DNA of 41,571 bases from Deltaproteobacteria bacterium (GTDB lineage: Bacteria > Myxococcota_A > UBA796 > SXON01): NCBI GenBank assembly GCA_016875435.1, contig VGRE01000007.1, positions 1-41,571 of the forward strand, in the 5' to 3' direction. Shown piece by piece: positions 5,036-20,215 of this stretch; position 1 is the first letter of the stretch; each line of letters opens with the position of its first letter. The translations under genes were made by a program, and so were the position numbers. Under the pieces are notes generated by a model. It made no database searches. It saw only the letters and a list, made by a program, of their open reading frames with translations, and had not been told where the DNA came from.

Positions 5036-5102
5036 GTTGCGAACCGTGACGAAGAAGCCCGCCCCCGGCTCGTCCCTGCTATACCGGCGCCCCGGGAGCC
5101 CC

Positions 5103-5594: not shown

Positions 5595-5597
5595 TCG

Positions 5598-7310
5598 ATG
5601 GAGCTAGCCGACGACCCGCTCGCGACGGAAGATCTCGCCCCCTTGATGGGCGAGGCTCTCGACCTGGGCGACACCGTGGCGGTGCCGACCCCGGTGCGCC
5701 CGTACGACCTGGCCGGTGGGGCCACGCACGGGCTGGAGGAGTTCCGCTTCCGCTACTACACCGTCGACGATCGCCTCGTCGGCTTCGAGGACAACCCCGT
5801 CCTCGACTACCAGGAGGCGGTGCAACGCCTCCTGGTGGTGGGCGGCAACTCGGCGCTCACGCTCGGCGCGCAGCTCGACGCAGTGGCGCTGTTCTCCAAC
5901 GCCTACAAGCTCGACGGCGTGCTCACCTACGAGCGCGACCTCTACACCGGCGGGATGATGAGTTTCCATCCCAACTGGTGGTTTAACCTTGAGAAGGTAT
6001 GGTTGCAGGGCCGCTCCGGAGGCGTCGACTGGACGGTGGGCGACAGCTACGCCGCCTTCGGCCGCGGCTACGCGCTCAACGTGGTGAAGAACACCGACAT
6101 CGACCTCGACACGTCGCTGCGCGGGGTGCACGTGGGGCTTTCGTCGGGGGCTTTCGAGCTGCGACTGGTCGAGGCCACCACCAACCCGCAGCAGATCCGC
6201 CTCGAGAACCCGAACGTGTCGATGGTGCCCGACTACGCGCACGTGGTGCACGGGGTTCGCGCCGACGTCTACGGGCGGGTCCACGCGGGCGTACACGGGA
6301 CGGCCTTCCAGCTGGTGCAAGGGGCCGACCCAACCGGCGACGGCTGGGCCGGCTACGGGCAGCCGGTGGGCGCGGGGATCGTGGGCGGCACGCTGGAGGT
6401 GTCGAGCCTCGGGCCCTTCGACGTGGGTCTCGAGGGCGACTACTTCGCCTACGACCCGTCGGTGTCCGACTCGCCCGGCTACGCCGCCTACGGCTCGCTC
6501 AGCGCCTACCCCGGGGTGGCGATCGTGCTCGTCGAGGGCAAGATCAGTCGCGACACTGAGCACGTCAACGCGTACTCGGCGCTCCACGGCTACGAGCTGT
6601 CTACCGGCCCTTCGCTCGAGTACGAGCGGGTGATCACCGAGGACAGCTCCGCCGCGGTCAACAGCAACGACATCAAGGGCGGGCGCGTTCGCGTCGACGT
6701 GAACGTGGGCAAGAACGGCGCCATCGTCACCCCGTACGTGTCGGCGGCGGCCTTCCGCGACGAGGACCTCGGCGGCGTCCATTTCAACGACACCCCGGAG
6801 ACCATCGTGCACGGCGTGGGTGGGGCCGTTGTCATCAAGGGCGAGTTCCACGCCCTGGTCAACGGCGGCTACCGCATGGACATGCGTGACGACGCACCGA
6901 CCGGCAACGCGGGCGACACCACCGCGCACCTCGACGCGGCCGTGACCATCCCGCTGGGGCGCTCGCTCTCTCTCGAATTGGCGCCCTCGGTGCTGGCCTA
7001 CCACTGGGGCGACAACCCCATCCAGCAGACCGACTACCTCGACGCTAGCAACGCGCTCGCGCTGAAGATCGGCGCCCCCTGGGCGCTGATCCTCTACACC
7101 GACTACTCCGACAACCCGCTGATCAACAGCACCGGCAACCTCACCGATGAGCTGTACGCCGCGGGCGAATTGCAGTGGATGCCGAGCACCGCCACCACGC
7201 TGAAGGCCTTCTACGGCGCCTACCGGGCGGGCATCCGCTGCGCCGGGGGCCAGTGCCGCTCGTTGCCCGGCTTCGAGGGCGGGCGCGTTTCCGTCACCTC
7301 CAACTTCTAG
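5598..7310 (+). CDS. Outer-membrane beta-barrel-like protein (DUF6029-like)
   Basis: 570 aa made of alternating amphipathic strands, many aromatic and Gly residues, and a C-terminal phenylalanine (VTSNF), as expected of an outer-membrane barrel. The C-terminal pattern of two Cys residues (IRCAGGQCRSLPGFEGGRV) resembles the DUF6029-type proteins I recall from deltaproteobacterial relatives; this family call is from memory. The ATG at 5598 gives no signal peptide, which is odd for a barrel. The frame is continuous with the upstream thioredoxin except for a single TAG (5592-5594), so readthrough, a nonsense mutation or a sequence error could join the thioredoxin and its signal peptide to the barrel. 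The discoidin gene follows 12 bp downstream. Confidence 0.75.
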   Translation: MELADDPLATEDLAPLMGEALDLGDTVAVPTPVRPYDLAGGATHGLEEFRFRYYTVDDRLVGFEDNPVLDYQEAVQRLLVVGGNSALTLGAQLDAVALFSNAYKLDGVLTYERDLYTGGMMSFHPNWWFNLEKVWLQGRSGGVDWTVGDSYAAFGRGYALNVVKNTDIDLDTSLRGVHVGLSSGAFELRLVEATTNPQQIRLENPNVSMVPDYAHVVHGVRADVYGRVHAGVHGTAFQLVQGADPTGDGWAGYGQPVGAGIVGGTLEVSSLGPFDVGLEGDYFAYDPSVSDSPGYAAYGSLSAYPGVAIVLVEGKISRDTEHVNAYSALHGYELSTGPSLEYERVITEDSSAAVNSNDIKGGRVRVDVNVGKNGAIVTPYVSAAAFRDEDLGGVHFNDTPETIVHGVGGAVVIKGEFHALVNGGYRMDMRDDAPTGNAGDTTAHLDAAVTIPLGRSLSLELAPSVLAYHWGDNPIQQTDYLDASNALALKIGAPWALILYTDYSDNPLINSTGNLTDELYAAGELQWMPSTATTLKAFYGAYRAGIRCAGGQCRSLPGFEGGRVSVTSNF

Positions 7311-7322
7311 GGATCGTCCACG

Positions 7323-8216
7323 ATGATGCTGATTCTCGCCTCGCTCACCCTCGCCGGCCCGGTCAAGGTTGCCGCGTGGACCGCCTCGTCCACGGCGGCA
7401 AACACCGACACCGCCGCCTACGACGCCTCGAAACTGGGCGACGGCAAGCAGTCCACCGCCTGGGTGGAGGGCGACGACGGCGCCGGCCTCGGGGCGTGGG
7501 TGCTCTTCGAGTTCGGCGGCGACAAGTCGATCTCGCAGGTGCAGGTGTGGGGGGGCAACTGGTACAACACCGAGTACTGGGGCCACTACAACCGTCCCAA
7601 GAACATCGTGCTCGAGTTCGCCGACGGCAGCACCGAGGAGCACACCCTCGCCGACGAGCAGGTCCCGCAGCTCATCAACTTGAAGGCGCCGAAATCCACG
7701 TCGACGGTCAAGTTGCGCGTGAAGGGCATCCACTCGGGCAAGGGCGTCGACACGGCGATCGCCGAGGTGAAGTTCTTCGACGGAGGCGCGACCGTGTCGA
7801 GCGCCACCGCATCGAGCACCGCGCCCGCCGACACCGACGGCAACTACAACGCGAGCAACCTCGTCGACGGCCTCTCCGACTCGATGTGGTGCGAGGGGAA
7901 CAAGAAGTCCGACGGCACCGGCGAGTGGGTGGAGTTGCGGCTGGCCAGGAGCGCCTCGCTCACCGGGCTCAAGATCCGCAACGGCGCCGGTTTCTCCACC
8001 GACCTCTTCAAGCAGGTCAATCGCGCCGCCACGGCGAGGGTGAGCTTCTCCGACGGTTCCAGCGAGGAGATTACCCTGAAGGACCTGCCGATGGAGCTGC
8101 CGCTGAGCTTCGCCTCGCCGCGCACCACGTCGAGCGTCAGGCTGAGCTTCACCTCGGCCAAGAAGGGCACCGACTACGACGACCTGTGCGTGTCGGAGAT
8201 CACCCTGGTGCCTTGA
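7323..8216 (+). CDS. Secreted protein with two discoidin-like (galactose-binding-like) domains
   Basis: A 297-aa protein with a short hydrophobic N-terminus (MMLILASLTLAGPVKVAA) and two tandem beta-sandwich repeats, residues about 16-150 and 155-297. Each carries the discoidin/F5-8C hallmarks: a WTASST or ATASST opening, LGDGKQSTAWVEG and LVDGLSDSMWCEG segments, and a closing I-A-E-V or V-S-E-I strand. The two halves are clearly related, for example in FADGSTEEHTL and FSDGSSEEITL. Such domains bind glycans or membranes. No catalytic domain is present, so this is a binding or adhesive protein. It is 12 bp after the barrel gene, probably in the same operon. The ligand is unknown. Confidence 0.82.
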   Translation: MMLILASLTLAGPVKVAAWTASSTAANTDTAAYDASKLGDGKQSTAWVEGDDGAGLGAWVLFEFGGDKSISQVQVWGGNWYNTEYWGHYNRPKNIVLEFADGSTEEHTLADEQVPQLINLKAPKSTSTVKLRVKGIHSGKGVDTAIAEVKFFDGGATVSSATASSTAPADTDGNYNASNLVDGLSDSMWCEGNKKSDGTGEWVELRLARSASLTGLKIRNGAGFSTDLFKQVNRAATARVSFSDGSSEEITLKDLPMELPLSFASPRTTSSVRLSFTSAKKGTDYDDLCVSEITLVP

Positions 8217-8240
8217 GGCGCGCGGTGGTTTCGCACGCAG

Positions 8241-8272
8241 TTGACGACGCTGCGGGGCAGATCCGCTACACT
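8241..8272 (+). promoter_or_regulatory. Candidate promoter for the VWA lipoprotein gene
   Basis: TTGACG at 8241-8246 and TACACT at 8267-8272 resemble -35 and -10 boxes but are separated by 20 bp, longer than ideal. They lie in the 74-bp gap between the discoidin gene and the ATG at 8291. Weak evidence. Confidence 0.3.
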
Positions 8273-8290
8273 CCGCAGCGGAGTTTGCCC

Positions 8291-9385
8291 ATGCGCCGTG
8301 CCCTGCTGCTGCTCGTTCCGTGCGTCATCGGGTGTGAAAACGACCGTAATCTGAACCGCATCCGCCAGACCGACGAGTTCGACCAGGCGCCCTCGAACAA
8401 GGTCGACATCCTCTGGGTGATCGACGACTCCACGTCGATGCAGGAGGAGCAGGCGGCGGTGGTGGCGGCGGCCGAAGACTTCCTCACCCAGCTCGAGACG
8501 GAAGACATGGACTTCCAGCTCGGCGTCATCACCACCGACATGGAGAGTACCAACCAGATGGCGGGACGACTCCTCGGCAACCCGCCCTACCTCACCTCGG
8601 AGTGCCGCTTCGACGGCGACCCGAGCGACTGCACCTACGGCGAGCAGTTCAAGGAGAACGTGCAGCAGGGCACCGGCGGATCCGACCAGGAAAAGGGCCT
8701 CGAGGCGGCCCTCGCCGCCGTCACCGTGCCGCTGGTGGAAACCTTCAACGCCGGCTTCGTGCGCGACGGCGCGATGCTGATGGTCGTCTACCTCACCGAC
8801 GAGAACGACTGCTCCGACGGCGGGCGCTTTGGCACCTCCGCCACCGGCGAGGACTGCTACACGCGGTACGACGATCTGATGCCGGTGCCCGACCTCGTGC
8901 GCTCCCTGAAAGACGCGAAGGCTGGCACCGGCGACGAGGTGGTGATGTCGGGCATCATCGGTCCCGACGCCGAGGTGGGCTGCCAGACGGCCGTCCCCGG
9001 CAAGCGTTACCAGCAGGCCATCCAGCTGCTGTCCGGGGTCGAGGCGAATATTTGCCTCTCGGACTACGCGCCGGTCATGGAGTCGCTCGGCCTCGCCGCC
9101 ACCGGCATCCTCACCAAGTTCCAGCTCACCAACGCCGCCGACGCCACCGAGGAAGGCGACATGACGGTGACGGTGACCGACCCCGACGGCACCAGCACCG
9201 AGGTGACCAAGGACGATACCGAGGGCTGGAGCTACGTCGAGGACTACGCGCAGGTGCAGTTCAACGGGAGCACCGTCCCGGTGCGCGAGGCCCACATCGA
9301 GGTGGAGTACTACGTCACCGGGCCGGTCCCCAACGGCGCGGGCGACGAACCCGAGGCCGCCGACACCGCCACCACCACGCCCTAG
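8291..9385 (+). CDS. VWA-domain lipoprotein
   Basis: A 364-aa lipoprotein. The signal is MRRALLLLVPCVIGC with a lipobox ending at C15. A von Willebrand factor A domain then starts at VDILWVIDDSTSM, where DDSTS matches the MIDAS DxSxS metal-binding motif. The domain continues through VVYLTDENDCSDGG to about residue 270. It has several Cys pairs (SECRFDGDPSDC, GEDCYTR, GCQT) that may form disulfides, and an acidic/Thr-rich tail ending EAADTATTTP. VWA lipoproteins of this form are frequent in Myxococcota. The role is probably metal-dependent protein binding at the cell surface or in the periplasm. The in-frame ORF extends far upstream, but that part is antisense-like noise; the ATG next to the signal peptide is the start. 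Confidence 0.9.
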   Translation: MRRALLLLVPCVIGCENDRNLNRIRQTDEFDQAPSNKVDILWVIDDSTSMQEEQAAVVAAAEDFLTQLETEDMDFQLGVITTDMESTNQMAGRLLGNPPYLTSECRFDGDPSDCTYGEQFKENVQQGTGGSDQEKGLEAALAAVTVPLVETFNAGFVRDGAMLMVVYLTDENDCSDGGRFGTSATGEDCYTRYDDLMPVPDLVRSLKDAKAGTGDEVVMSGIIGPDAEVGCQTAVPGKRYQQAIQLLSGVEANICLSDYAPVMESLGLAATGILTKFQLTNAADATEEGDMTVTVTDPDGTSTEVTKDDTEGWSYVEDYAQVQFNGSTVPVREAHIEVEYYVTGPVPNGAGDEPEAADTATTTP

Positions 9386-9390
9386 CCGCC

Positions 9391-9780
9391 ATGTCGGTGC
9401 GCGTCGTCTGCGCCTGCATCCGCCGCGGGGCCACCGTGCTCGTGGCGCGCCGGGGCCCCCAGATGGAGCACGCCGGTACCTGGGAGTTCCCCGGGGGCAA
9501 GGTGGAGCCGGGCGAGGACGACCGCGACGCGCTCGCGCGGGAGATCGCCGAGGAACTCGGTTGCCGGGTGAGGGTGGGGCCGCTGGCGGGCGAGGGGACC
9601 ACCGGGCGCATACATCTCGTCGGCTACTGGTGCGAGGCGGTGGAGGAGCCCGTCGCCACCGAGCACGACCGCCTGGAGTGGGCGGAGATTCGCGCGCTCG
9701 GCGAGCTCCGCTGGGCACCGGCCGACGGGCCGATCATCGCGGCGATCCAGTCCGCGGCGCCCTACTCGACGACCGGGTGA
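9391..9780 (+). CDS. Nudix hydrolase, MutT-like
   Basis: A 129-aa Nudix pyrophosphohydrolase of MutT size. The Nudix box is intact: GGKVEPGEDD followed by REIAEELG fits GX5EX7REUXEEXGU. The N-terminal RVVCACIRRGATVLVARR and the TWEFPGG segment are typical of 8-oxo-dGTP diphosphatase MutT/CTP pyrophosphohydrolase NudG. It likely cleanses oxidised or other nucleotides; the exact substrate cannot be read from sequence. It begins 5 bp after the VWA gene and overlaps the convergent fxsA end by 19 bp. Confidence 0.92.
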   Translation: MSVRVVCACIRRGATVLVARRGPQMEHAGTWEFPGGKVEPGEDDRDALAREIAEELGCRVRVGPLAGEGTTGRIHLVGYWCEAVEEPVATEHDRLEWAEIRALGELRWAPADGPIIAAIQSAAPYSTTG

Positions 9781-10226
9781 TCGAACTTCTTCTCGGCCTC
9801 CTGTCGCGCGCGCATCGCGGGGCCGGGGGCGCCGTCCCCGACAAACGTGAATCCTCGTCGCGACAGGTACGCCCACGCCCGGTCTTTCACCCGCGGCGCG
9901 AGCCAGCGACGCGCCGGTGCCCAGAGGAGCACAATGCCGACGACGTCGGAGAGGTAGCCCGGGGTGACGAGCAGAACCGCGCCCACGAGCGCGAGGAGGC
10001 CCTCGACCAGCTTCACCGCCGGCGGCTCGCCGCGGCGCAGGCCCTCGAAGATCTCGCGAAGCACGGTGCCGCCGGCGCGCTTGCCTAGCCACGCGCCCAG
10101 GAGCCCCGCGAGCACGAGGGTACCCACCGTCTCCAGCGCCCCGAGCCGCGAGCCCACCTCGATGATCAGGTAGGTCTCCACCACCGGGACCACGGTGAAG
10201 AGCAAGAAGAGGACGGCCGCGATCAT
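9762..10226 (-). CDS. fxsA: FxsA family membrane protein
   Basis: A 154-aa cytoplasmic-membrane protein of the FxsA family, named for suppression of F-plasmid exclusion of phage T7 in E. coli; its normal cellular role is poorly known. Family hallmarks are the N-terminal helix FLLFTVVPVVETYLIIEVG, the glycine-rich TLVLAGLLGAWLGKRAG, and ALVGAVLLVTPGYLSDVVG, followed by a polar C-terminal tail. The ATG at 10226 overlaps the mazG stop (ATGA on the minus strand), so the two are translationally coupled. Its 3' end overlaps the convergent Nudix gene by 19 bp. Confidence 0.92.
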   Translation of the reverse strand: MIAAVLFLLFTVVPVVETYLIIEVGSRLGALETVGTLVLAGLLGAWLGKRAGGTVLREIFEGLRRGEPPAVKLVEGLLALVGAVLLVTPGYLSDVVGIVLLWAPARRWLAPRVKDRAWAYLSRRGFTFVGDGAPGPAMRARQEAEKKFDHPVVE

Positions 10227-10975
10227 TCCTCCTCCCGCTTGGCCGCTTGCCACCACGCTTCCAGCCGCTCCATGCCCGCCTCGGCGGGGTCGACGCCAAG
10301 AGCGGCCGCGCGCGCTTCCACGCTGCGGAAGCGCCTCTCGAAGCGCACGTTGGCCATGCGCAGCGCGTCTTCGCCGCTCACGCCCACCCAGCGGCCCAGG
10401 TTGCTCGCGGCGAGCAGCAAGTCGCCGTACTCGTGCGCCACGCGGGTGTTGTCGCCCTGGGCGAGGGCCTCGGCCAGCTCGCGGCGCTCCTCGTCGATCT
10501 TGTCGACCACGCCGCGCATGTCTGGCCAGTCGAAACCCACGGCGGCGACCTTCTCGGCAACCCGGTGGGCGCGCACCAGGGCGGGGAGGGAGGCGGGCAC
10601 GCCGTCGATGCGCGACCGTCCCGCGCGCGCCTTGCGACGCTCCCAGGCGGCGATGCCGCCGGGCTCCGGCTGCGCCTCGGTCGCGAACACGTGTGGATGT
10701 CGCGATACCATCTTGTCGACGATGGCGCTCTCCACGTCTTCGATGGAGAACTCGCCTCGCTCCTCGGCGAGGCGCGCGAGGAAGTACACCTGGAAGAGCA
10801 GGTCGCCGAGCTCCTCCTTGAGCTGGGTCGGCTCGCCCTCGTCGAGGGCCCCGAGCACCTCGTGGCACTCCTCCAGGAGGTAGGGCCGCATCGAGGCCTC
10901 GTCCTGGGCGCGGTCCCAGGGGCAGTCGCGGCGCAGGCGAGCCACGAGCGCGCGCAGGTCGGGAGTATCGGGCAC
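10223..10975 (-). CDS. mazG: Nucleoside triphosphate pyrophosphohydrolase MazG
   Basis: A 250-aa all-alpha NTP pyrophosphohydrolase that converts NTPs/dNTPs to monophosphates. The N-terminal signature CPWDRAQ (residues 18-24), the metal-binding EECHE and EELGDLL (ExxD), and a second MazG repeat with DEERRELAEAL and HEYGDLLLAA show the canonical tandem architecture. The RHPHVF segment is also characteristic. The length is close to E. coli MazG (263 aa). No ATG fits; the GTG at 10975 begins directly before the conserved region. It is coupled to fxsA by an ATGA overlap. Confidence 0.94.
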   Translation of the reverse strand: MPDTPDLRALVARLRRDCPWDRAQDEASMRPYLLEECHEVLGALDEGEPTQLKEELGDLLFQVYFLARLAEERGEFSIEDVESAIVDKMVSRHPHVFATEAQPEPGGIAAWERRKARAGRSRIDGVPASLPALVRAHRVAEKVAAVGFDWPDMRGVVDKIDEERRELAEALAQGDNTRVAHEYGDLLLAASNLGRWVGVSGEDALRMANVRFERRFRSVEARAAALGVDPAEAGMERLEAWWQAAKREEE

Positions 10976-11017
10976 GCCGCCAGAGTAAGCATCTCCGCGG
11001 CAGTTGGCCGTCATCGT

Positions 11018-11046
11018 TTGTGGTGGCGCTTCGCAGCAAGTAGACT
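11018..11046 (+). promoter_or_regulatory. Candidate promoter for the first membrane-protein gene
   Basis: TTGTGG (11018-11023) and TAGACT (11041-11046) are separated by 17 bp. The GTG start at 11055 lies 8 nt after the -10 box, so transcription would begin at or next to the start codon and the mRNA would be nearly leaderless. It sits in the gap between divergent mazG and this gene. Confidence 0.4.
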
Positions 11047-11054
11047 CCGCCACC

Positions 11055-12782
11055 GTGACCACGCCCGACGAAACGGCACCTCCCCCGTCGCGGGCCTTGC
11101 GCGAGGTGCTCGTGGCCGATGGGTGGGCAGCGGCGGCCGTCGTGGTCGCGACCGCACTACTGCACGGGTCGCTGCTGCTCTCGCCGGCCACGCGGATCAC
11201 CCACACGCAGTTCGCGGGCACGCATGGCTGGGCCCTTGACCGCATGGCGGCGCTGCTGGCGGGCGCCGCAACCTGGAGCAGTTGGACCCCGGCCGTGTCC
11301 TTCCCCGACGTCACATACGTGGCGCACATCGCCTGGGTGCCGGGGCTCGTCGCGGCGCCCTTCAACTGGGCCTTCGGGCCCGTGGTCGGCCTGAACGCTG
11401 CCACCGTGCTCTCGCCCGCCCTCGCCGTGCCGGTGGTGTCGGCCCTCGCTCGCCACTGGAGGCGGGCCACGCCTGCCTCGGCCGCGCTCGCTGGGGCCCT
11501 GTTCGCACTCTCGCCGCAGGCGATCGGGGCGCTCGCCAACGGGCAGCTGTGCAAGGCGCAGCTCTGGGCGGTGGCGATAGTGCCGCTCGCGATCAGCCTA
11601 GGCGGCCGGAGCTGGACCGGACTCCTCGCCGCCCCCCTGCTGGCGGCGTCGAGCGTGTACACGGAGCCAACCTACGCGCTCCTCGGCGCTTTGCTTGTCG
11701 TGCCCGTTGGCGCCTGGGAAGCCTGGCGCGAGCGGCGCCTCGTCGTCGCCGCTCGGCTGCTCCTGGCGGCGGCCGCCGTGGGCGCTGTCGACCTCGTGGC
11801 CAAGCGGTACTACGGCGTGGCCACCGGGGCCCTGTACGTACCTGCCCACCCGGTGCCGATCAACTGGTTCGAACATTACCTGCTTCAGGTCGCGACACCG
11901 GTAACGCTTGTCACCGGGCGAGCCTACGAGGCTCGGCTCGATCTCGTCGGGCACGTGGACTACGTCGGCCCGGGCGCGCTGGCCGTGCTCGCCGTCGCGC
12001 TGGTCTGCCGTGGGACGGGGCGCGGGCTGGTGGCCCTGGCTGCGGCGCTGGGGCTGGTGCTCGCGCTGGGCGAGTGGCTCGTCACGCTCGATGGGCCGGT
12101 GCGAGTCGGGGGTCGTGAGCTGGCCCTGCCCGCGCGGGCGCTCGCCGCCGTCGGCTTTCCACTCGCGGATTCGGGCCAGTACTACCGCGCGCTGGTGCTG
12201 GCGTGGCTGGCCGTGGCGCTCGCCGTCGCCAGCGCCCGTCCGCGGGTGGCGGCCCTGCTCGCGCTGGTGCTCGTGGGCGACGGGCTCCGGGCCACGCGAA
12301 ACCTGTGGCCGGTGCCTGCGGCCGACTACTCCGCCGCGCACTGCTTCACGCCGCTCTCGCGCAACCCGGGGAAGGTGGGCCAGCGGTTGCGACGATGCCA
12401 GCAACTGGTGGAGGAGTGTGCCACCTGGGTGCCCATCGTCACCGAGGGGGGCTCGTGGCGACTCGACCTGCCTCGGAAGCCCGGCCTGTACGAGGCGGGC
12501 CGCCGCGAGCTTGCCACGGCCCTCGACGGCTTGCCAACCTCCGATCCCCCCGCGGCCCACTTCGACAGCCGCCCCGCCGATTTCCTCGTCTCCACCTACG
12601 CCCATATCGAGCCCTCCGCGCTCCTGGAGCAGCTGCAGCGAGATGGAGTGCGCCGGGTGGCCGCGTGGGGCGTGCTCGAGGCGGGCGATGCCGCGCTCGT
12701 GGCGAGTATGCTGGGGGCTCCCACCTGTAGCGGCGGCGGGGTGAGCACCTGGGACATCCCCCTCGCGACGGGTGCACGGTGA
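11055..12782 (+). CDS. Large polytopic membrane protein, GT-C-like
   Basis: A 575-aa protein of roughly a dozen hydrophobic helices (for example AAAVVVATALLHGSLLLSPA and GLVALAAALGLVLALGEWLV), with a soluble C-terminal region of about 170 aa rich in Cys (HCFTPLSRNPGKVG, RCQQLVEEC). Size, helix pattern and context resemble lipid-linked-sugar glycosyltransferases of the GT-C superfamily, but I see no diagnostic motif, so the function is inferred. The GTG at 11055 is preferred over an in-frame TTG at 11004 because the candidate -10 box at 11041-11046 lies between them. It couples to the next membrane protein by a GTGA overlap. Confidence 0.7.
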   Translation: MTTPDETAPPPSRALREVLVADGWAAAAVVVATALLHGSLLLSPATRITHTQFAGTHGWALDRMAALLAGAATWSSWTPAVSFPDVTYVAHIAWVPGLVAAPFNWAFGPVVGLNAATVLSPALAVPVVSALARHWRRATPASAALAGALFALSPQAIGALANGQLCKAQLWAVAIVPLAISLGGRSWTGLLAAPLLAASSVYTEPTYALLGALLVVPVGAWEAWRERRLVVAARLLLAAAAVGAVDLVAKRYYGVATGALYVPAHPVPINWFEHYLLQVATPVTLVTGRAYEARLDLVGHVDYVGPGALAVLAVALVCRGTGRGLVALAAALGLVLALGEWLVTLDGPVRVGGRELALPARALAAVGFPLADSGQYYRALVLAWLAVALAVASARPRVAALLALVLVGDGLRATRNLWPVPAADYSAAHCFTPLSRNPGKVGQRLRRCQQLVEECATWVPIVTEGGSWRLDLPRKPGLYEAGRRELATALDGLPTSDPPAAHFDSRPADFLVSTYAHIEPSALLEQLQRDGVRRVAAWGVLEAGDAALVASMLGAPTCSGGGVSTWDIPLATGAR

Positions 12783-14503
12783 ATCGGGGAGGCATCCCAA
12801 CGACGCTGGCGCTCTTGATGATCCTGGTGGGCGCCCTGGCCGCGATTCGTTTCGCGCTGGGGGAGGGGCCCGACATCGAGTCGGATGGCAACGGCCTGCG
12901 TCTCGCCCGCGCCTTGGCCTTCCTGGAGTCGGGGCGTGCCGAGTTCCTCGAGCGCTGGGGCGAGCCCATCTGGGATTACGCCGTGCCCCTCCCGGAGGGT
13001 GCGCCCTCGCCCTACCCGCCGCTGCCGTCGCTGGTGCTCGCGCCGGCGCTGCTGTTCGCGGGGCCCGGGGCGACAGGCCAGCGACTCGCCGCGGTCACCG
13101 CGCTGGTCCTGCTCGGCCTCGGTACGCTCCGCGCGGGCCGGGCCACCGGGGGGCCGTGGGGTGGTGTCATCGCGACAGCACTCGCACTCGGTTCGCCGGT
13201 CGTCGTGGCCACGAGCCGATTGCCTTGCGGCGAGATCGTCGCCGCCGCGGCGATGGCCTGGGCCGTTGGGGCGATCGTCGACCTGGCCGCCGGAAGGGGC
13301 GAGGGCTGGGAAGCCGGCCTTGCCCTCGGCGCCGCCTTGCTCGCGAAGTGGACGAACGCGCCGCTCCTTGCCGCGCCGGCGCTGGTGCTCGCGGTCGCGG
13401 CGTCCCGGGGCGCCGGGTGGCGCTGGGGCCTGGCGACGGTGGGCCTTGGCCTCCTGGAGGTGGGCCTGCTGGCGGGGGCCGCCAAGGGCGCGGTGGCGGC
13501 CCACGTGCCGGGGATCGTCGCGGTGCTCGGGGGCGCGCTCATCGTGGGCGCGAGCCGCGCCGTTCGCGGCCAGCCCGGGGTGGCAGCGGCGCGAGTCCTG
13601 GCTGTCGGCAACGCCCTCGCCGCGCCCTGGTACGGCTACGCCGCCACTGCGATCCTCGCGCACGTGGAGGGGCACGTGGCCGCCTCGGTACCGGCCGCGC
13701 CCCAGCAAGCGGAGGTCTTCGCCCTGCTCGCGGTCTACGCCTGCACCCCGGGGGCCAGCAGCTTCCTCTTGCTCGGGCTCCTGGGCGTGGCATGGGTGCC
13801 CGGCCGGCTTGCGCCGCTCGGTGTGGCCGCCGCCGCGCTGGTGGGCCTCTGGGGGGCCTTCGCAGCGGGCCGTGTCCACGGCTTCTTCACCGGGCAGGCG
13901 CAGGATCGACTGCTGGTGGCGTACGCCGTGCTCGCCGCGTGCTTCGCGGCGCGCGGCGCGCTGGTCTGGCGGCTGGGTCCCCTCGTGGGCACCGCTGCCC
14001 TGGCCGTCGGCCTCGTCGCCACGCTCGCCCCGCACCTGGGCGCAGGGGGCCAGCCTCTGCGCCAGTTCCACGGGGCACGCAGCTGCGGCGTGAGCGCCGA
14101 TCCCGCGGAGCGAGGGTATCGCTGGCTCGTCCCCGGGCTGGCCATCGCATCCGGTCCTCGAGTCGGCCAGGCCGACCCGGCGCTCGAGGCGCTGGTGGCG
14201 GTCCTCCCCCGTCGTGACGCACCGATGCTGACCGGGCTCCTCTTCGACGCCGACGACTGCGAGCTGGGCGAGGGGCGCCTGCTGCGGCTGGCCGAGACCG
14301 GCCGCGTGGTGAGCGTGGGACCGCGCGCCGACGCCGAGGTGATCCGGGCCTGGCTGCGCGACCGGGCGGCGCGAGTGGACGAGTTCGTGGCCTGGGGCGG
14401 GCGGTCGAGCGACGTGCTCTCGGCGGTGGCGGCGGCCGAGGGCTGGCCCGCGCCCGTGAGGCAAGGCGCGGTTGCTGTCGCCGTTCCCGGGCGAGCACCA
14501 TAG
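12779..14503 (+). CDS. Second large polytopic membrane protein, GT-C-like
   Basis: A 574-aa multi-helix membrane protein. After an N-terminal helix (TTLALLMILVGALAAIRFAL) comes a loop with SDGNGLRLARALAFLE and a PSPYPPLPSLVLAPALL segment, a layout seen in GT-C dolichol/undecaprenol-sugar transferases and PMT-like proteins where the first loop carries acidic residues (GPDIESD). A stretch LALGAALLAKWTNAPLLAAP resembles the 'surviving-K-W-T' region of ArnT/PMT-type enzymes. The C-terminal ~120 aa are soluble. The start is GTG overlapping the upstream stop (GTGA, 12779-12782). The SGNH gene follows 13 bp after. Glycosyl transfer is an inference. Confidence 0.72.
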   Translation: MNRGGIPTTLALLMILVGALAAIRFALGEGPDIESDGNGLRLARALAFLESGRAEFLERWGEPIWDYAVPLPEGAPSPYPPLPSLVLAPALLFAGPGATGQRLAAVTALVLLGLGTLRAGRATGGPWGGVIATALALGSPVVVATSRLPCGEIVAAAAMAWAVGAIVDLAAGRGEGWEAGLALGAALLAKWTNAPLLAAPALVLAVAASRGAGWRWGLATVGLGLLEVGLLAGAAKGAVAAHVPGIVAVLGGALIVGASRAVRGQPGVAAARVLAVGNALAAPWYGYAATAILAHVEGHVAASVPAAPQQAEVFALLAVYACTPGASSFLLLGLLGVAWVPGRLAPLGVAAAALVGLWGAFAAGRVHGFFTGQAQDRLLVAYAVLAACFAARGALVWRLGPLVGTAALAVGLVATLAPHLGAGGQPLRQFHGARSCGVSADPAERGYRWLVPGLAIASGPRVGQADPALEALVAVLPRRDAPMLTGLLFDADDCELGEGRLLRLAETGRVVSVGPRADAEVIRAWLRDRAARVDEFVAWGGRSSDVLSAVAAAEGWPAPVRQGAVAVAVPGRAP

Positions 14504-14516: not shown

Positions 14517-16148
14517 GTGGCTCGCTGGACTCGTCGTTTCCTTCTCCTCCTCGGCAGCAGCCTGCTTGGGCTCGTGGCGCTCGAGCTTGGCGTGCGGCTC
14601 AGCTGGGACAACATGCCCGACGCCGTGTACCCCAACGACACGGGCTGCTGCGGGGGCTACACGCTCCGCAAGAACGTGGACGGCCACGACCTCTTCCACC
14701 GTTTCCACCACAACTCGCTCGGCTACCGCGGTCCCGAGTACGCGCCGCGCCCGCAGGGCAAGCTGCGGGTGGCGGTGGTGGGCGACTCCTTCGTGTACGG
14801 CGTGGCGGTGTCCGGGGCCGATGCCATTCCTGGGAGGCTGGAAGCCCGGCTCCTCGACCGGGGGCTGGAGGCCGAGGTGGTCAACGCGGGCATGCCAGGC
14901 AACAACCTCGAGTACGACCTCGCGCGAGTGCGTGGCACGGTCCGCGACTACCATCCCGACATCGTCTCGCTGGTGCTGCTGTACAACGACTTCGAGGAGG
15001 CGAAATCCCAGCTCGGTCGCGGCGGCGGTTTCGATAGCGCGCGGGTGAAGCCCACCGGCGAGCGCAACCGCATGGGCGACCTCGCGGAGTGGATGTTGCC
15101 CCGGGTCGACGCGGGCGACCCGCGTTTCGGCCCCCGCGCCACGCAACCCGCCCCCTACGAGTGGCGCTACGGCCTGGCCCGGTGGTGGCGCACTTACATG
15201 TTCCTCGGCCTGAACTTCCGCAAGCTGGGGACGGACTGGGGGCTGGCCGAGCGAGAGTTCACCCTGCTCCACGTCGACAGCCGCCAGGTGGAGGCCGTGG
15301 CCTGGAGCCGGCTACGCGACACGCTGGCCGAGGTGGTGGCGCTTGGCAAGACCGAGGGTTTCCGGCTGGTTGTGAGTATCTTCATGGATGGCCCGATCGA
15401 GGGAATCCCCGCGCTCAAGCTCCGCGAGGCGATCACCGCGTCGGGCGCCGCCCACATCGATCTCGCCCCCTTGTGGGGCGATCTCAGCAACTACAACCGT
15501 GAGTTCTCGTTTCGATTCGACAACCACCCCAACCGACGGGCCAACGACATGGCTGCCGAGGTGATCGAGCACGGCCTCGGGGCGCTCGGCTGGCTGCCGG
15601 GCAGCCCGTTGCCCGACGACTCGGCGTTCATGGCCCAGCACCAGCAAGCCGAGGCGAGCTACCTCGCGCGACAGGAAACCATTGCCGCTGAGCAAAGAGC
15701 GCAGCTCGACGCGTGGCGCGAGGGTTTCAGCGCCTGGCTCGCCGGGGAGGAGCGCGACGACCAACTGCGGCGCCGCCAGGCGAACCAGTGGCTTTTCGGC
15801 TGGGTCGATCCCACGCTCGACATGCGCGTTCGTGGCAAGCTCCTCTCGGCGGAGGGCGGCTTCTTCCTGCGTGCCGCCGAGGTGTCGGCCAGCCTCCGCG
15901 TGCAGGGCACTCGGCTCGCCGCTGGCGGCATCGAGCTCCGGGCCGAGTGCGATGGTGTCGCGACATCGCCACCCCAATCCGAGCTTCCAGCCGAGTTCGA
16001 CATCGCGCTCGCGCTCGCGCGCCCGGTGCGGCCGGGCGAGGTGGTGGAATGTGTGCTCCGCGTCGAGGGCCGGGGGCCCACGTCGCCTCATGGCTCGCAG
16101 GCACAGGTGGCGATATCGCGCCTCGAGCTCGCGGCTGCGATACCCTGA
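14517..16148 (+). CDS. Membrane-anchored SGNH-fold protein with extra C-terminal domain (SGNH-1)
   Basis: 543 aa. An N-terminal helix (FLLLLGSSLLGLVALELGV) anchors or exports the protein. The SGNH hydrolase fold follows: block I VAVVGDSFVYG with S91, block II NAGMPGNNLEYD, LLYNDFEE near block III, and block V FDNHPN with D335 and H337. This is the set of residues expected for an acyl esterase or acyltransferase acting on glycans. Beyond residue ~360 is an additional ~180 aa: a charged helix (RQETIAAEQRAQLDAWREGF) and a beta-rich end, possibly a carbohydrate-binding module. The GTG at 14517 is chosen because it precedes the anchor. It is the first of four SGNH-type genes. Confidence 0.85.
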   Translation: MARWTRRFLLLLGSSLLGLVALELGVRLSWDNMPDAVYPNDTGCCGGYTLRKNVDGHDLFHRFHHNSLGYRGPEYAPRPQGKLRVAVVGDSFVYGVAVSGADAIPGRLEARLLDRGLEAEVVNAGMPGNNLEYDLARVRGTVRDYHPDIVSLVLLYNDFEEAKSQLGRGGGFDSARVKPTGERNRMGDLAEWMLPRVDAGDPRFGPRATQPAPYEWRYGLARWWRTYMFLGLNFRKLGTDWGLAEREFTLLHVDSRQVEAVAWSRLRDTLAEVVALGKTEGFRLVVSIFMDGPIEGIPALKLREAITASGAAHIDLAPLWGDLSNYNREFSFRFDNHPNRRANDMAAEVIEHGLGALGWLPGSPLPDDSAFMAQHQQAEASYLARQETIAAEQRAQLDAWREGFSAWLAGEERDDQLRRRQANQWLFGWVDPTLDMRVRGKLLSAEGGFFLRAAEVSASLRVQGTRLAAGGIELRAECDGVATSPPQSELPAEFDIALALARPVRPGEVVECVLRVEGRGPTSPHGSQAQVAISRLELAAAIP

Positions 16149-16166
16149 CGTCGGCTAGGGATCGCG

Positions 16167-17216
16167 ATGCGCCGCGCTCGTCTCTTGGCGTTCTCCTTGC
16201 TGGTCCTCGCCCTGGTGGTGGCGGCGGGCGAGGGTGTTTGCCGCGCCCTTTGGACCGAGCAACAGGTGGCGCCGCTCGACCCTGCCAACGTCATATTCCG
16301 CGATCATCCCACGTTGTTCTGGGTGCAGCGCCCCTTCCTCGACGAGAAGATGCGGCCCCACGGCAGGCTCCGCACCAACAGCCTCGGGCTGCGCAACGAG
16401 GAAGTGGCACTCCCGCGCCCGCCGGGCGTCTACCGCATCCTCTCGCTGGGGGAGTCGAGCACCTGGGGCGCCTCGGTGGACCTCCAGGACACCTACAGCA
16501 AACGATTCCAGCAGCTGCTCAACCAAGACCGCCACGTCCGCGGCGGGCCCACCTACGAGGTGATCAACGCCGGCGTCGGCGCCTACTCGTCCTGGCAGTC
16601 GAGCGTCTACCTGCGCGAGTCCGGCCTCGCGCTCGACCCGCAGATGGTGCTGGTCTACCACCTGAAGAACGACCGGCTGCCTCGTGGCGTGGTCGACCGG
16701 CACAATTACCTGTACTCGGTGAGCAGCACCGACCGGCGCCTCTACGAGCGGCGTCGCCTGATGGCGCCTGCGCTGAACGTACTCTACGAGTCGCGACTAT
16801 ACTTCGCTCTTCGACGGTGGGGGATGCTGACGTTCTTCCGCCAGTCGGCCCAGGTGCCGCCGGGCCAGTCGATCCCCGGGCTCGGCGCGCGGGTGCCCGA
16901 CGAGGACCGGCTCGCTGCCCTCTCCTCGATGGCCGAGGTGTGCAAGGCCAGGGGCGTCCGGATGGTCGTGATCAAGCCGGTGTACGGCACCGCCGAGCCC
17001 GACGAACTGCTCGCCGCCTTCGCGGCCGATCACCAGCTTCCGTTCATCGACCTCGCCGCCGTGAAGGACAGTGGCGCCTGGGGAACGAACAACACCGCCC
17101 TCTTTAACGACCTGGTGCACCCCTCCGCGGACGGTCACCGACTCATCGCCCGAGCGATCTACGCGGCGCTGGATACGCAAGGCATACTGGCGAGGATGAC
17201 CCCACCCGGGAAGTAG
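16167..17216 (+). CDS. SGNH-fold hydrolase/acyltransferase-like protein (SGNH-2)
   Basis: 349 aa with an N-terminal membrane helix (LLAFSLLVLALVVAAGEGV). Block I is ILSLGESSTWGAS, with GES instead of GDS and nucleophile S97; block II is VINAGVGAYSSWQS; the conserved block V pair is DLVHP with D315 and H318. An intervening TNSLGLRNEE motif, common to this subfamily, precedes block I. It begins 18 bp after SGNH-1 in the same operon and ends 24 bp before the convergent lipoprotein stop. Extracytoplasmic de-acylation or acyl transfer on a glycan is inferred from the fold. Confidence 0.86.
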   Translation: MRRARLLAFSLLVLALVVAAGEGVCRALWTEQQVAPLDPANVIFRDHPTLFWVQRPFLDEKMRPHGRLRTNSLGLRNEEVALPRPPGVYRILSLGESSTWGASVDLQDTYSKRFQQLLNQDRHVRGGPTYEVINAGVGAYSSWQSSVYLRESGLALDPQMVLVYHLKNDRLPRGVVDRHNYLYSVSSTDRRLYERRRLMAPALNVLYESRLYFALRRWGMLTFFRQSAQVPPGQSIPGLGARVPDEDRLAALSSMAEVCKARGVRMVVIKPVYGTAEPDELLAAFAADHQLPFIDLAAVKDSGAWGTNNTALFNDLVHPSADGHRLIARAIYAALDTQGILARMTPPGK

Positions 17217-17240
17217 CCCACGGGCTTGCTGACGGACGGG

Positions 17241-18008
17241 CTAGCCGGGCGCGCCGCCGCCGGCCGCCGGGGCGCTTCCACCCGCCGGCTTCTTCGGCGT
17301 GGCGCCGGGAGACGGTTGCTGGCCCCCCATCTCGTCGGGCTCGGTGGGGTCGGGCTGCGGCCCGGAGAGCGTGTTGGCGCTCTCGGTGGCAGCGGGCGCG
17401 GCGCCCGAGCCATCCTTCAGGGTGACGTTGACGCCGGTGACCGGGACCTGCGCCACGGTGACCGTGACTTCGCCGGCGGGCTCGTAGGTGGAGGGCCCGT
17501 TGTTGTCGGAGTCGATGAAGGCCGAAACACGCACTTCGCCGAGGTCTTTCGGAGCCTCGACCTCCCAGGGCCCCACCTTGTCGAGCGAGAGCACGTGGAG
17601 AATCTGGTTTTCCTTGTTGAGCAGGTCGACCCGGAGCTTGCCAGAAATCTTGCCACTGTAGGCGATGGTGCCGCTCAGCTTCACACCCGTGCCGGGCGTG
17701 ACCTTGAACGACTGCGGCCCACCCGCGTTCGGCATGACTGGCCCCGACGGCGCGGCCCCGGCCTGGCCGCCGGCTGGCGCCGCGCCCATCCCCCCCGAGG
17801 CACCCATTGCAGGATCGGCCGCCGGGGGCGGCGCGCCCTCGGCACCCTCGGGTGGCGCGGCACCGTTGGGCGCCCCCGGACCACCGCCCTGGTTGACGGG
17901 AGGCGGCGGGAGGGCGACAGGGGCGTCGGAGGGACAACCGGCGAGCAGGGAAAGGGTCAGTGACAGCAACAAAGAGCACCTCGTGGGTTGGCACCTAACC
18001 TCTCTCAC
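17241..18008 (-). CDS. Pro/Gly/Ala-rich lipoprotein with a transthyretin-like beta domain
   Basis: 255 aa from the GTG at 18008. A lipoprotein signal (LLLSLTLSLLAGC) leads into ~80 residues of low-complexity Pro/Gly/Ala. A beta-sandwich then starts near KVTPGTGVKLSGTIAYSG and contains ISGKLRVDLL and VRVSAFIDSDNNGPST, resembling carboxypeptidase-regulatory/transthyretin-like domains. It ends in another Pro/Gly/Ala-rich tail. The start is uncertain: a TTG at 17972 has a better GAGG ribosome-binding site but would leave no basic residues before the lipobox. The gene sits on the opposite strand inside the SGNH block. Function is unknown; surface or periplasmic location is inferred. Confidence 0.8.
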   Translation of the reverse strand: MREVRCQPTRCSLLLSLTLSLLAGCPSDAPVALPPPPVNQGGGPGAPNGAAPPEGAEGAPPPAADPAMGASGGMGAAPAGGQAGAAPSGPVMPNAGGPQSFKVTPGTGVKLSGTIAYSGKISGKLRVDLLNKENQILHVLSLDKVGPWEVEAPKDLGEVRVSAFIDSDNNGPSTYEPAGEVTVTVAQVPVTGVNVTLKDGSGAAPAATESANTLSGPQPDPTEPDEMGGQQPSPGATPKKPAGGSAPAAGGGAPG

Positions 18009-18057
18009 GCGTCCGGGGAAGGCAACAGGGCGCGGACGGCGATATCGGGCGGGTGGG

Positions 18058-19038
18058 ATGTCTTCGAAGTTTCGCCGCGCTCTGTTTGCCCTCGTCACCC
18101 TCGTGGGGGTGCTCGCCCTAGCGGAGGTCGGCGCCCGGACCTACGGCGGGGTCGTGCGGGCCATGTCGCGCGAGGGAAGCAGCACCGGGGCGGGCGGCCT
18201 GGCCGTGGTGTGCGTGGGGGATAGCTGGGTGAACGGCTACGGGGTGAGGCCCGGCGAGTCCTGGCCCGCCGTGCTCGCGAGCGCCGTCGCGGCGGCGGGC
18301 GGGCCACCGATCACCGTGGAAAACCTTGGCGCCTCGGGCACCAACCCGCTCGAGGCCGCCCAGGCCCTCGCGCGCCGCGTGGAGTCCGCAGGGCCGATCG
18401 ACCTCGTGTTCGCGCTGGTGGGGATGAACCCCGGACTCGAGTACCCGGGCGAGGCCCGCGCCGGCGGGGTGTTGCGCGCCGCGCGGCCCTATCTCTCGCA
18501 CTCCGCCGTTTACCGGCTGCTCACCCAGGTGGTGTGGCGGGCCGAGCTGGGCGCCGACGCCGTGCTCGCCGGGAGCGTGCAGGGCACGTACCGTCACGTG
18601 AAGGGCGGCCTCGTCGAATCGCGCGAGGAGGCCGCCCGGCACGAGCAGCTCGAGTCCGAGCGCCTCGCCACCGACGTCGCGCGCATGGACGCGCTCGCGA
18701 CCATAGCGGGGGGCAGCCTGGTGTTGCTCAACTATGCGCTGCCGCCCATCTTGCTGGCCGACCCAAACTTCGTGGCGCCGGTGGTGAACCGCCGGATCGA
18801 AGTGGCAGCGACGCAGAACGCGGTGCCGCTGATCGACATGCAGGCGGAGTACCTCCGGCGCGGTGTGCAAGGCCCCGAGGTGGTGATCGGGGGCGCTGCG
18901 GGCCTCCGACCGTCGTTGCCCGGGGGACGGGCGGGCGCGTCTGGCGACGCGAGGTCTGGCGGCTACGAGCTTCACCCCAACGTCCAGGGCCACGCCATCT
19001 ACGCCGACGCGGTCGCGCGCTACGTCGTCGCCCGCTAG
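18058..19038 (+). CDS. SGNH-fold hydrolase-like protein (SGNH-3)
   Basis: 326 aa with an N-terminal helix (LFALVTLVGVLALAEVGART). Block I is VVCVGDSWVNGYGV with S56 and block II is VENLGASGTNPLEA. The block III Asn position reads ALVGMNPGLEYPG rather than GxND. Block V is GGYELHPNVQGH, with H306 and Glu304 where Asp is usual. The catalytic Ser and His are therefore kept, but other residues depart from the canonical set, so activity is less certain than for its neighbours. The ATG at 18058 is used; the in-frame extension upstream lies over the divergent lipoprotein gene. SGNH-4 starts 7 bp downstream. Confidence 0.84.
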   Translation: MSSKFRRALFALVTLVGVLALAEVGARTYGGVVRAMSREGSSTGAGGLAVVCVGDSWVNGYGVRPGESWPAVLASAVAAAGGPPITVENLGASGTNPLEAAQALARRVESAGPIDLVFALVGMNPGLEYPGEARAGGVLRAARPYLSHSAVYRLLTQVVWRAELGADAVLAGSVQGTYRHVKGGLVESREEAARHEQLESERLATDVARMDALATIAGGSLVLLNYALPPILLADPNFVAPVVNRRIEVAATQNAVPLIDMQAEYLRRGVQGPEVVIGGAAGLRPSLPGGRAGASGDARSGGYELHPNVQGHAIYADAVARYVVAR

Positions 19039-19045
19039 TCTCGCG

Positions 19046-20215
19046 ATGCGCATGTCCACCTCGCGCTGGCCTCGCCGTGCTGCCGCCCTCGCGCTCGGGC
19101 TGCTGCTCGCCCCGTGCGTCGGCGAGGTGGGAGCGCGGGTCTACCCACCCGACGCGGGCGCCGCGTTGTTGTACAACGCCCCCGCCGGCACGCCGCCCGA
19201 CATGTTCCGCTACGACAGCGCCGGCCGGCTGGTGCCCAACCCGGGCTTCGACGGCCACTACGAGTGGCTCGACCACTCCGTCAGCGTGCGGTTCGACAGC
19301 CGGGGCTTGCGCGGTCCTGAAACCCTTCCACCGGCCCCGCGCTGGCTCTCGGTGGGTGACTCTTTCGTGCTGGCGCGGCAGGTGGACGAAGCCGACACAT
19401 TCATGGCCCTGGCCAGCCCGGGCCTCGGCGCCAACCTGATCAACGCGGGCATGGACGGCTACGCCACCTGGGACTACCTGGCCCGCTACCTGGCGCTCGA
19501 CCCGGTGGTGGAGGCCGAAGCCGTGCTGGTGACGCTCTTCGTGGGCAACGATCCCGCGCAGGACGACGGCCCGAGCGCCATTCCCCGCGGGGGCGATCCC
19601 TTCGCTCGGGTGCCGCTCGCGCCCCACGCCGACACCGCCGACAACGCGTTCGCGCTGTTCCGGATCGCGCACGAGTCGCCGACGCCCACCGAGGCTTTCC
19701 TATTTCGGCACAGCGCGCTCTTCGCGTGGTGGCGCGTGTTCGACGCGCTGGCCGCGCGCGACCCGCTCGACCAGCAACGGCAAGCTCGGTTCCGCCAGGA
19801 GCTGCTACCGTTCAGCGAGGAGGGGGCGTCGAAGGTGCAGCGGCTCGCCGGGGCCACGGGCAACGCGCTCGACGCCTTCAAGAGGTTGGCCAGCGCCCGG
19901 GGCGACCGCCTGCTGGTGGCGGTGGCCCCCGCCAGCTTCGCGCTCGACGCCGCCAGCACCTCGGCCACCCTCCACACTTTTGGGCTCGATGCGTCTCGAC
20001 CGGCCCCCACGAGCCTGCACGACGCGATCGTGGCCCGTGCTCGCGACCAGCGCATCGACACCTGCGACCTCCGCCCGGCGCTGGTGGCCGCGCGGCAGGG
20101 AGGCGAGGAGCCCTACTTCCGCTTCGAGGGGCACTGGAACCAGGCCGGCCACCGCGCCGTGGCCGAGGCCCTCGTCCGCTGTTTCGCAGGCTCGACCGGC
20201 GCTACGGGCTGGTGA
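19046..20215 (+). CDS. SGNH/AlgX-like acyltransferase-type protein (SGNH-4)
   Basis: 389 aa with a short N-terminal hydrophobic signal (AAALALGLLLAPCVGEVG). Block I is WLSVGDSFVLA with S106, block II is NAGMDGYATWDY, block III is FVGNDPAQD, and the C-terminal motif is FEGHWNQAGH with E361 and H363. The H-W-N-x-x-G-H arrangement resembles the HW motif of AlgX/AlgJ-like O-acetyltransferases, with Glu in place of the usual Asp. It is probably cotranscribed with SGNH-3 and overlaps the convergent lipoprotein gene by 14 bp. The substrate is unknown. Confidence 0.85.
   Translation: MRMSTSRWPRRAAALALGLLLAPCVGEVGARVYPPDAGAALLYNAPAGTPPDMFRYDSAGRLVPNPGFDGHYEWLDHSVSVRFDSRGLRGPETLPPAPRWLSVGDSFVLARQVDEADTFMALASPGLGANLINAGMDGYATWDYLARYLALDPVVEAEAVLVTLFVGNDPAQDDGPSAIPRGGDPFARVPLAPHADTADNAFALFRIAHESPTPTEAFLFRHSALFAWWRVFDALAARDPLDQQRQARFRQELLPFSEEGASKVQRLAGATGNALDAFKRLASARGDRLLVAVAPASFALDAASTSATLHTFGLDASRPAPTSLHDAIVARARDQRIDTCDLRPALVAARQGGEEPYFRFEGHWNQAGHRAVAEALVRCFAGSTGATGW

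What the first reader, a model, noticed from the sequence alone, without database searches (positions are those of the whole stretch)
14517..20215. Four consecutive SGNH-fold genes downstream of two GT-C-like membrane proteins
SGNH-1 to SGNH-4 each show block I GDS/GES and a C-terminal His, but no two are close copies: SGNH-1 has an extra C-terminal domain, SGNH-2 uses GES, SGNH-3 has a Glu where the catalytic Asp is usual, and SGNH-4 has an AlgX-like HW motif. They follow two large membrane proteins of GT-C type. No MBOAT is in the block; the only one lies 12.6 kb away with its own AlgX-like partner. This looks like a glycan-decorating system with several dedicated acyl-transfer or esterase subunits, which I have not seen described in this form.
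Basis: partly seen in the sequence, partly recalled or inferred. Interest (0 to 1): 0.7.

Follow-up and report, generated by a model that had tools for sequence, protein, structure and literature searches.

The report
GT-C and SGNH glycan-editing gene island
A stretch of an uncultured myxobacterium-like genome holds two membrane sugar-transferase-like genes followed by four different membrane-anchored esterase-fold genes, a pairing that recurs in relatives and probably edits sugars on the cell surface.

Summary
The four SGNH genes at 14517-20215 are real: S2 and S3 pass Pfam's GDSL cut-off, S1 models as SGNH, and all four carry Ser-Gly-Asn-His in canonical order behind an N-terminal anchor. 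GT1 upstream models as GT-C; GT2 looks weakly PMT-like. Corrections: a minus-strand lipoprotein-like ORF splits the set into GT1-GT2-S1-S2 and S3-S4; S4 also has Glu; S4 is not AlgX-like (AlgX is permuted, S4 is not). The MBOAT 12.6 kb away and its AlgX neighbour form a canonical pair. The six-gene order was seen nowhere else, but S4-GT1-GT2 is contiguous in one congener, a contig from another family holds two GT1-type genes and at least four SGNHs, and SGNHs lie within 6 kb of 14 of 31 GT1 relatives (23 SGNHs, about 0.7 expected). The genome shows about 21 SGNHs, 3 MBOATs, no AT3. Best reading: a periplasmic glycan-maturation neighbourhood in which GT-C enzymes add sugars and SGNHs edit O-acyl groups; substrate and chemistry are inferred. 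Against: only 7 of those 23 share GT1's strand, GT1-type genes are numerous, and window GT1 lacks both loop aspartates kept by 10 of 17 aligned members.

The parts
11004..12782 (+). GT1: GT-C-fold membrane protein (start may be 11106)
   Evidence: fold model pLDDT 84.9, best PDB hits OST, AftA, AftD, PglB, ArnT; profile A1 matched 23 of 376 other phylum genomes, all of the same order, with at most 3 candidates scored per genome
12779..14503 (+). GT2: PMT-like GT-C candidate; overlaps GT1 by 4 bases; E34-x-D36 kept in the congener
   Evidence: PMT_2 16.4 bits, congener ortholog 25.7 (cut-off 26.1); alignment A2
14517..16148 (+). S1 (SGNH-1): anchored SGNH with a C-terminal helix and beta domain; S91, G125, N157, D335/H337
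   Evidence: C-terminal homolog next to an S4-like SGNH and GT1 in G034
16167..17216 (+). S2 (SGNH-2): anchored SGNH, block I GES, block V DxxH
   Evidence: PF13472 33.8 bits over cut-off; best relatives near GT1 in L097, L100, L101
17241..18008 (-). Lipoprotein-like ORF (LLAGC, lipobox recalled; GTG start at 18008, a TTG further in possible) between S2 and S3, opposite strand
   Evidence: the gene caller kept only 17241-17735; no Pfam family
18058..19038 (+). S3 (SGNH-3): S56, G91, N124, H306 with E304 in the Asp position
   Evidence: PF13472 47.2 bits; relatives in L055 and L115
19046..20215 (+). S4 (SGNH-4): anchored SGNH, S106, G135, N168, E361/H363 (FEGHW), canonical order, not AlgX-permuted
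   Evidence: PF16822 partial hit, profile 28-128 of 268; 64% ortholog next to GT1-GT2 in L053
32789..34189 (+). MBOAT (context), C-terminal FLYFQF acyl-shuttle motif
   Evidence: PF03062 108.8 bits; motif from PMC12148441
34189..35229 (+). AlgX-like partner of the MBOAT (context): DTHW before GTSYS, i.e. His before Ser (searches used the longer frame from 34054; residue numbers are of that frame)
   Evidence: PF16822 258.6 bits, profile 1-268

Best explanation
A periplasmic glycan-maturation island. GT2, and possibly GT1, are GT-C transferases that add sugars from polyprenyl-phosphate donors made elsewhere to a surface glycan or glycolipid. S1-S4 are inner-membrane-anchored periplasmic SGNH enzymes that set the O-acyl pattern of the same glycan. 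They probably work mainly as esterases or trans-esterases, since the block has no acyl exporter and the genome has far more SGNHs than MBOAT or AT3 proteins; some may draw acyl groups from one of the genome's three MBOATs. Shown: SGNH and GT-C folds or families, catalytic residues in order, N-terminal anchor sequence, recurrence of the association. Inferred: periplasmic location, glycan substrate, acyl chemistry, physical coupling.
For: SGNH family, fold and catalytic order. GT-C fold of GT1; GT2 orthologs below but near the PMT_2 cut-off. Contiguous S4-GT1-GT2 in a congener. 14 of 31 GT1 relatives have at least one SGNH within 6 kb: 23 SGNHs against 0.66 expected (density). A wider test on the first 100 listed GT1-type genes and first 100 listed SGNHs of 23 genomes: 24 pairs within 6 kb against 1.03 expected (lists). 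Reverse anchor: a GT1-type gene in 12 of 30 S4-like loci after removing six query members, where about 1.4 such genes are expected (401,949 bases times 520 matches in 145.3 Mb). Contig G013:C30 has two GT1-type genes and four SGNHs; L147 has GT1, three SGNHs over a Pfam cut-off and a fourth at 22 bits. 3 MBOATs and 0 AT3 against about 21 SGNHs in the genome.
Against: 16 of the 23 neighbouring SGNHs are on the strand opposite to GT1 (strands), and 13 of 24, so no fixed operon. 17 of 31 GT1 loci have none within 6 kb (some cut by contig ends). GT1-type genes are numerous (520 matches in 23 genomes), and 81 of the 100 listed have no listed SGNH within 6 kb. The six-gene order was seen nowhere else. 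S3's best relative (L055) has no GT1 in its 19 kb by phmmer. Window GT1 lacks both loop aspartates that 10 of 17 aligned members keep. No PF00535 glycosyltransferase lies on this contig. The models were trained on some of the counted genes, and the genomes are related, so the p values are nominal.
Confidence: 0.5

Rival explanations
1. S1-S4 are acyltransferases fed in trans by the MBOAT at 32789 (or the genome's other two), as PatA-PatB or AlgI-AlgJ/X.
For: MBOAT with C-terminal FLYFQF shuttle on the same contig; S1, S3 and S4 use an acid-x-His block V as AlgX does.
Against: That MBOAT has its own adjacent permuted AlgX partner; a protein similar to the window MBOAT was seen in only 1 of the 32 other GT1 loci (L094).
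Confidence: 0.2
2. The SGNHs are lipid, thioester or general esterases with no functional tie to GT-C; the cluster reflects local duplication or regional drift.
For: Closest solved structures include TesA-type thioesterases; mixed strand orientation.
Against: SGNH density near GT1 relatives about 35 times background; S1-S4 are not close duplicates; S1-, S2- and S4-like types recur near GT1-type genes.
Confidence: 0.2
3. GT1/GT2 are protein glycosyltransferases (OST/PMT-like) and the SGNHs edit acylated protein-linked glycans.
For: Foldseek ranks OST, AglB, PglB and Pmt among GT1's best hits.
Against: AftA, AftD and ArnT rank among them too; similarity of fold does not give the acceptor; no acceptor protein was identified.
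Confidence: 0.1

Closest known systems
MBOAT-SGNH acyltransferase pairs (PatA/PatB, AlgI/AlgJ-AlgX, DltB/DltD)
   Same: SGNH proteins that modify envelope polymers; one canonical pair is on this contig.
   Different: S1-S4 have no adjacent MBOAT, no FXYXXF shuttle, and canonical S-G-N-H order rather than AlgX's permuted order.
AT3-SGNH fusions (OatA, OafB)
   Same: Membrane part plus SGNH part; relatives hold membrane-SGNH fusions.
   Different: S1-S4 have a single N-terminal anchor; no AT3 match in 8 of 9 genomes searched, the own one included; the fused membrane regions had no Pfam match at E<=0.05 in the three proteins scanned.
Three-component extracytoplasmic glycosylation systems (GtrA/GtrB/Gtr; the GT136 system of PMC11127046)
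   Same: GT-C enzyme that decorates a glycan outside the cytoplasm.
   Different: No PF00535 donor synthase on the contig, no flippase family among the block's genes (a Wzx/MatE-like gene lies 18 kb away); SGNHs instead.
Membrane-anchored GDSL esterases (PF13472; NCBIfam LA_2490 family)
   Same: S1, S2 and S4 share the anchor, the ExxxR after it and (N/D)SxGxR before block I.
   Different: All far below the LA_2490 cut-off of 325 bits (14-26 bits); here found beside GT-C genes.

Membership tests
SGNH hydrolase superfamily | Ser, Gly, Asn, His of blocks I, II, III, V in that order | tested here: met
   All four by motif scan; definition from PMC9487903 section 4, part 1
SGNH hydrolase superfamily | SGNH fold | tested here: met
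   S1 by model and Foldseek; S2 and S3 by Pfam over cut-off; S4 only by a partial PF16822 match over cut-off, not modelled
SGNH hydrolase superfamily | Catalytic triad geometry | not testable with these tools
   Tool answers give no coordinates of the models
AlgX family (S4) | Circularly permuted H-S-G-N order with GTSYS block I | tested here: not met
   S4: GDS at 106 before H363; window AlgX: DTHW at 234 before GTSYS at 326; definition from PMC9487903 passages
MBOAT-SGNH system (S1-S4) | Adjacent MBOAT with C-terminal FXYXXF, or a DltX-like shuttle | tested here: not met
   In six frames of the window only FKYFNF and FLYFQF, both in the MBOAT at 32789-34189
MBOAT-SGNH system (32789-35229) | MBOAT with C-terminal FXYXXF beside a permuted SGNH | tested here: met
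GT-C glycosyltransferase (GT1) | GT-C fold | tested here: met
   Foldseek ranks 1-16: 15 titled OST, AftA, AftD, AglB, PglB, ArnT or Pmt, one a secretory translocon; 4 of them with E<=0.001; query TM-scores only 0.27-0.46
GT-C glycosyltransferase (GT1) | Acidic residue(s) in the first external loop | tested here: inconclusive
   Window GT1 lacks Asp in both columns kept by 10 of 17; Asp79 present instead; the alignment has a gap there; role of these residues recalled
GT-C glycosyltransferase (GT2) | PMT_2 family over cut-off or GT-C fold | tested here: inconclusive
   16.4 and 25.7 bits against 26.1; not modelled
Three-component glycosylation system | Polyprenyl-P-sugar synthase, flippase and GT-C together | tested here: not met
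   None of the 18 PF00535 matches lies on contig C7; no flippase family in the block

The most novel reading that the evidence does not exclude
A lineage-specific GT-C/SGNH machine that edits glycan acylation without any membrane acyl exporter: each anchored SGNH moves acyl groups between periplasmic glycans or lipid-linked sugars delivered by its GT-C partner, with the ExxxR next to the anchor as a possible contact site.
Probability: 0.12. Interest if true: 0.75.

Novelty: new variant of a known kind. Interest (0 to 1): 0.45.

Why it matters
The bacterial envelope-acylation systems described in the papers seen here pair an SGNH with an MBOAT or AT3 protein. Here SGNHs far outnumber such partners and some keep company with GT-C enzymes instead. 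If the link is functional, it offers a testable route to many orphan anchored SGNH genes and to how these uncultured bacteria build surface glycans.

Tried and rejected
S4 as an AlgX relative: rejected, because its PF16822 hit covers profile 28-128 of 268 and its residues are not permuted. A conserved six-gene operon: rejected for the genomes searched. GT1 and GT2 as one sequence family: no support (hhalign probability 2%, E=0.022, with only two GT2 sequences), whereas the partner GTp of six other loci is a GT1 relative (E=6.9e-29) and GT2 is not like GTp. The membrane part of the membrane-SGNH fusions as GT1-like: no support. A DltX-like microprotein beside S1-S4: none with FXYXXF. Plasmid carriage of GT1: no match. 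A genome-contig scan with S1 found no relative. My first expectation for the reverse test (0.09) used too narrow a GT1 count; one search gave 520 matches and the expectation became about 1.4. Literature: searches; others returned no paper; among the 16, 3, 1 and 12 (of 33) papers listed by the others, no title or shown start of abstract describes a GT-C/SGNH association.
Full report
WHAT IS THERE. The window is the whole contig C7 of a 4.78 Mb, 90.5% complete assembly. Gene order: GT1 11004-12782, GT2 12779-14503, S1 14517-16148, S2 16167-17216, all on +; then a minus-strand ORF 17241-18008 that begins like a lipoprotein (LSLLAGC); then S3 18058-19038 and S4 19046-20215 on +. So the four SGNH genes form at least two units, GT1-GT2-S1-S2 and S3-S4, with a gene of the other strand between them.

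ARE THEY SGNH? Pfam: S1 PF13472 30.1 bits (cut-off 32.9), S2 33.8, S3 47.2, S4 PF16822 41.8 and PF13472 18.2. In the genome search S1 passed 'with its neighbours in the frame' (34 bits). S1, the weakest, was modelled (pLDDT 70.8, pTM 0.66); the 46 PDB hits with E<=0.001 are titled esterase, thioesterase, lipase/acylhydrolase or GDSL-type, two chains of 5jd3 'alpha/beta hydrolase'. It adds a long helix (366-409) and a beta domain (~449-539, pLDDT mostly about 80). A motif scan finds Ser, Gly, Asn and His in canonical order in all four: S1 S91/G125/N157/H337, S2 S97/G136/N168 and the His of DLVHP, S3 S56/G91/N124/H306, S4 S106/G135/N168/H363. The block V acid is Asp in S1 and S2, Glu in S3 and, contrary to the finding, also in S4. 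FEGHW is kept in S4's 64% ortholog, while five more distant relatives in A7 have FDGHW.

S4 IS NOT ALGX-LIKE. AlgX and AlgJ are circularly permuted (H-S-G-N), with block I GTSYS and block V DXH (PMC9487903, passages seen). The window's AlgX protein (34189-35229) shows this: DTHW at 234, GTSYS at 326 of the frame from 34054, full-length PF16822 hit of 258.6 bits. S4 has GDS first and HW last, and its PF16822 hit covers profile positions 28-128 only. The MBOAT before that AlgX protein ends in FLYFQF, matching the FXYXXF acyl shuttle of PMC12148441 (abstract, start of the introduction and passages seen). That pair fits a canonical MBOAT-SGNH system; no such motif lies near S1-S4.

THE GT-C PROTEINS. 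GT1 has no Pfam family over cut-off. With 16 relatives its model reached pLDDT 84.9 and pTM 0.88. Of Foldseek ranks 1-16, 15 are by title OST, AftA, AftD, AglB, PglB, ArnT or Pmt structures and one a secretory translocon; 4 have E<=0.001, and TM-scores on the query are only 0.27-0.46. GT2 shows no profile relation to GT1 and has a weak PMT_2 match. Two aspartates of GT1's first external loop are both kept in 10 of 17 aligned members; window GT1 and five others lack both, one lacks one; Asp79 is present in 7 of 17, the window included; H74 and R395 are invariant. The alignment has a gap there. Whether GT1 is catalytic is open.

CONSERVATION. S1 matched 15 of 57 other genomes of the order at E<=1e-10, but only in G034 does the match cover the C-terminal half. 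GT2 matched 1 of 62 others, S3 3 of 62, both at E<=1e-8. Profile A1 of GT1 matched 23 of 376 other phylum genomes at E<=1e-12, all of the same order; only 3 candidates per genome were scored, so copies were missed. The broader profile A9 gave 520 matches at E<=1e-8 in the 23 genomes that had A1 matches, so GT1 belongs to a large GT-C family in this order. In the congener G061 the order is S4-GT1-GT2 (64/52/42% identity), without S1-S3. In G034 an S1-like C-terminal piece and an S4-like gene converge on GT1. The six-gene order itself was seen nowhere else.

ASSOCIATION. I fetched the surroundings of all 32 other GT1 genes (33 rows, one gene in two pieces). Leaving out G061:C124, which defined the query, 14 of 31 have an SGNH (A6 model, 60 bits or more) within 6 kb: 23 SGNHs against 0.66 expected from 358 matches of the same model at E<=1e-15 in the 23 genomes, about 145.3 Mb (rounded sizes as printed). 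A6 was built partly from these SGNHs and the genomes are related, so the Poisson p of 1.7e-27 is nominal. A less selected test took the first 100 listed matches of A9 and of A6: 24 pairs within 6 kb against 1.03 expected; 19 of the 100 GT1-type genes have such a neighbour, 81 do not. Anchored on S4-like SGNHs in named genome contigs (62 loci, of which the 36 best, L120-L155, were used), a GT1-type gene is found in 18 of 36, or 12 of 30 after removing six query members, where about 1.4 genes are expected from the density. Record titles name Deltaproteobacteria, Proteobacteria, Myxococcota and other MAGs. Against a fixed operon: 7 of the 23 SGNHs and 11 of the 24 pairs lie on GT1's strand. The closest parallels: contig G013:C30 (L182), of another family, with GT1-type genes at both sides of four SGNHs (S4-, S2-, S1- and S4-like) and a further PF13472 match at 9045-9677; and L147, GT1 with three SGNHs over a Pfam cut-off and a fourth at 22 bits.

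HOW IT MAY WORK. S1-S4 begin with a hydrophobic anchor followed by E-x3-R. In the 20 aligned SGNHs of A6 (S1, S2, S4 and relatives; S3 not included) the Glu is in 20 of 20 and the Arg in 19 of 20; S3 shows it too. This points to inner-membrane-anchored periplasmic enzymes (inference). GT-C enzymes use lipid-linked donors outside the cytoplasm (PMC11127046, passages seen). About 21 SGNH genes face 3 MBOATs and no AT3 match here; 8 of 9 genomes searched had no AT3 match. So most SGNHs cannot each have a dedicated exporter of these two kinds, and esterase or trans-esterase action on a shared glycan is the simplest reading. The assembly is incomplete, so absences are provisional. Substrate and chemistry are not shown.

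VERDICT. Real genes, a recurrent association, known folds, unproven function. The order is not a conserved operon. I rate it a new variant of a known kind.

Noticed in passing
L147:3825-6071, L149:7936-9942, L150:8646-10772, L142:15311-16816 (cut by contig end): Natural fusions of a several-helix membrane region with a C-terminal SGNH domain (Pfam run on three of the four: 47-56 bits), three of them near GT1-type genes; the membrane part has no Pfam match in those three.
   Followed up: partly
L134, L135, L137, L139, L140, L143 (and L131 in part): A second recurrent context of S4-like SGNHs: a 412-418 aa protein upstream and a 1119-1197 aa protein downstream; in L135 the latter has MopE motifs and beta-helix repeats.
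   Followed up: partly
L182 (G013:C30) 1240-14155: A 15 kb contig with GT1-type genes at both sides of four SGNH genes, and a further PF13472 match; the closest parallel to the window.
   Followed up: partly
L097:11920-12921: The S2-like SGNH beside GT1 has Ala in place of the block I serine (GGA), so it may be non-catalytic.
   Followed up: no
window 11004-12782, residues 62-120: GT1 lacks both first-loop aspartates kept by 10 of 17 aligned members and has Asp79 instead.
   Followed up: partly
window 37694-40219: Alg13/Alg14-like split glycosyltransferase (GT28 C-terminal domain and Alg14) and a Wzx-like flippase, a second glycan locus on the contig.
   Followed up: partly
window 35291-35922: Small ORF followed by a PIN-domain gene, looks like a toxin-antitoxin pair.
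   Followed up: no
L140, L142, L146: Record titles say Klebsiella pneumoniae, but the contigs carry genes like those of this Myxococcota-type group; the titles look mislabelled.
   Followed up: no
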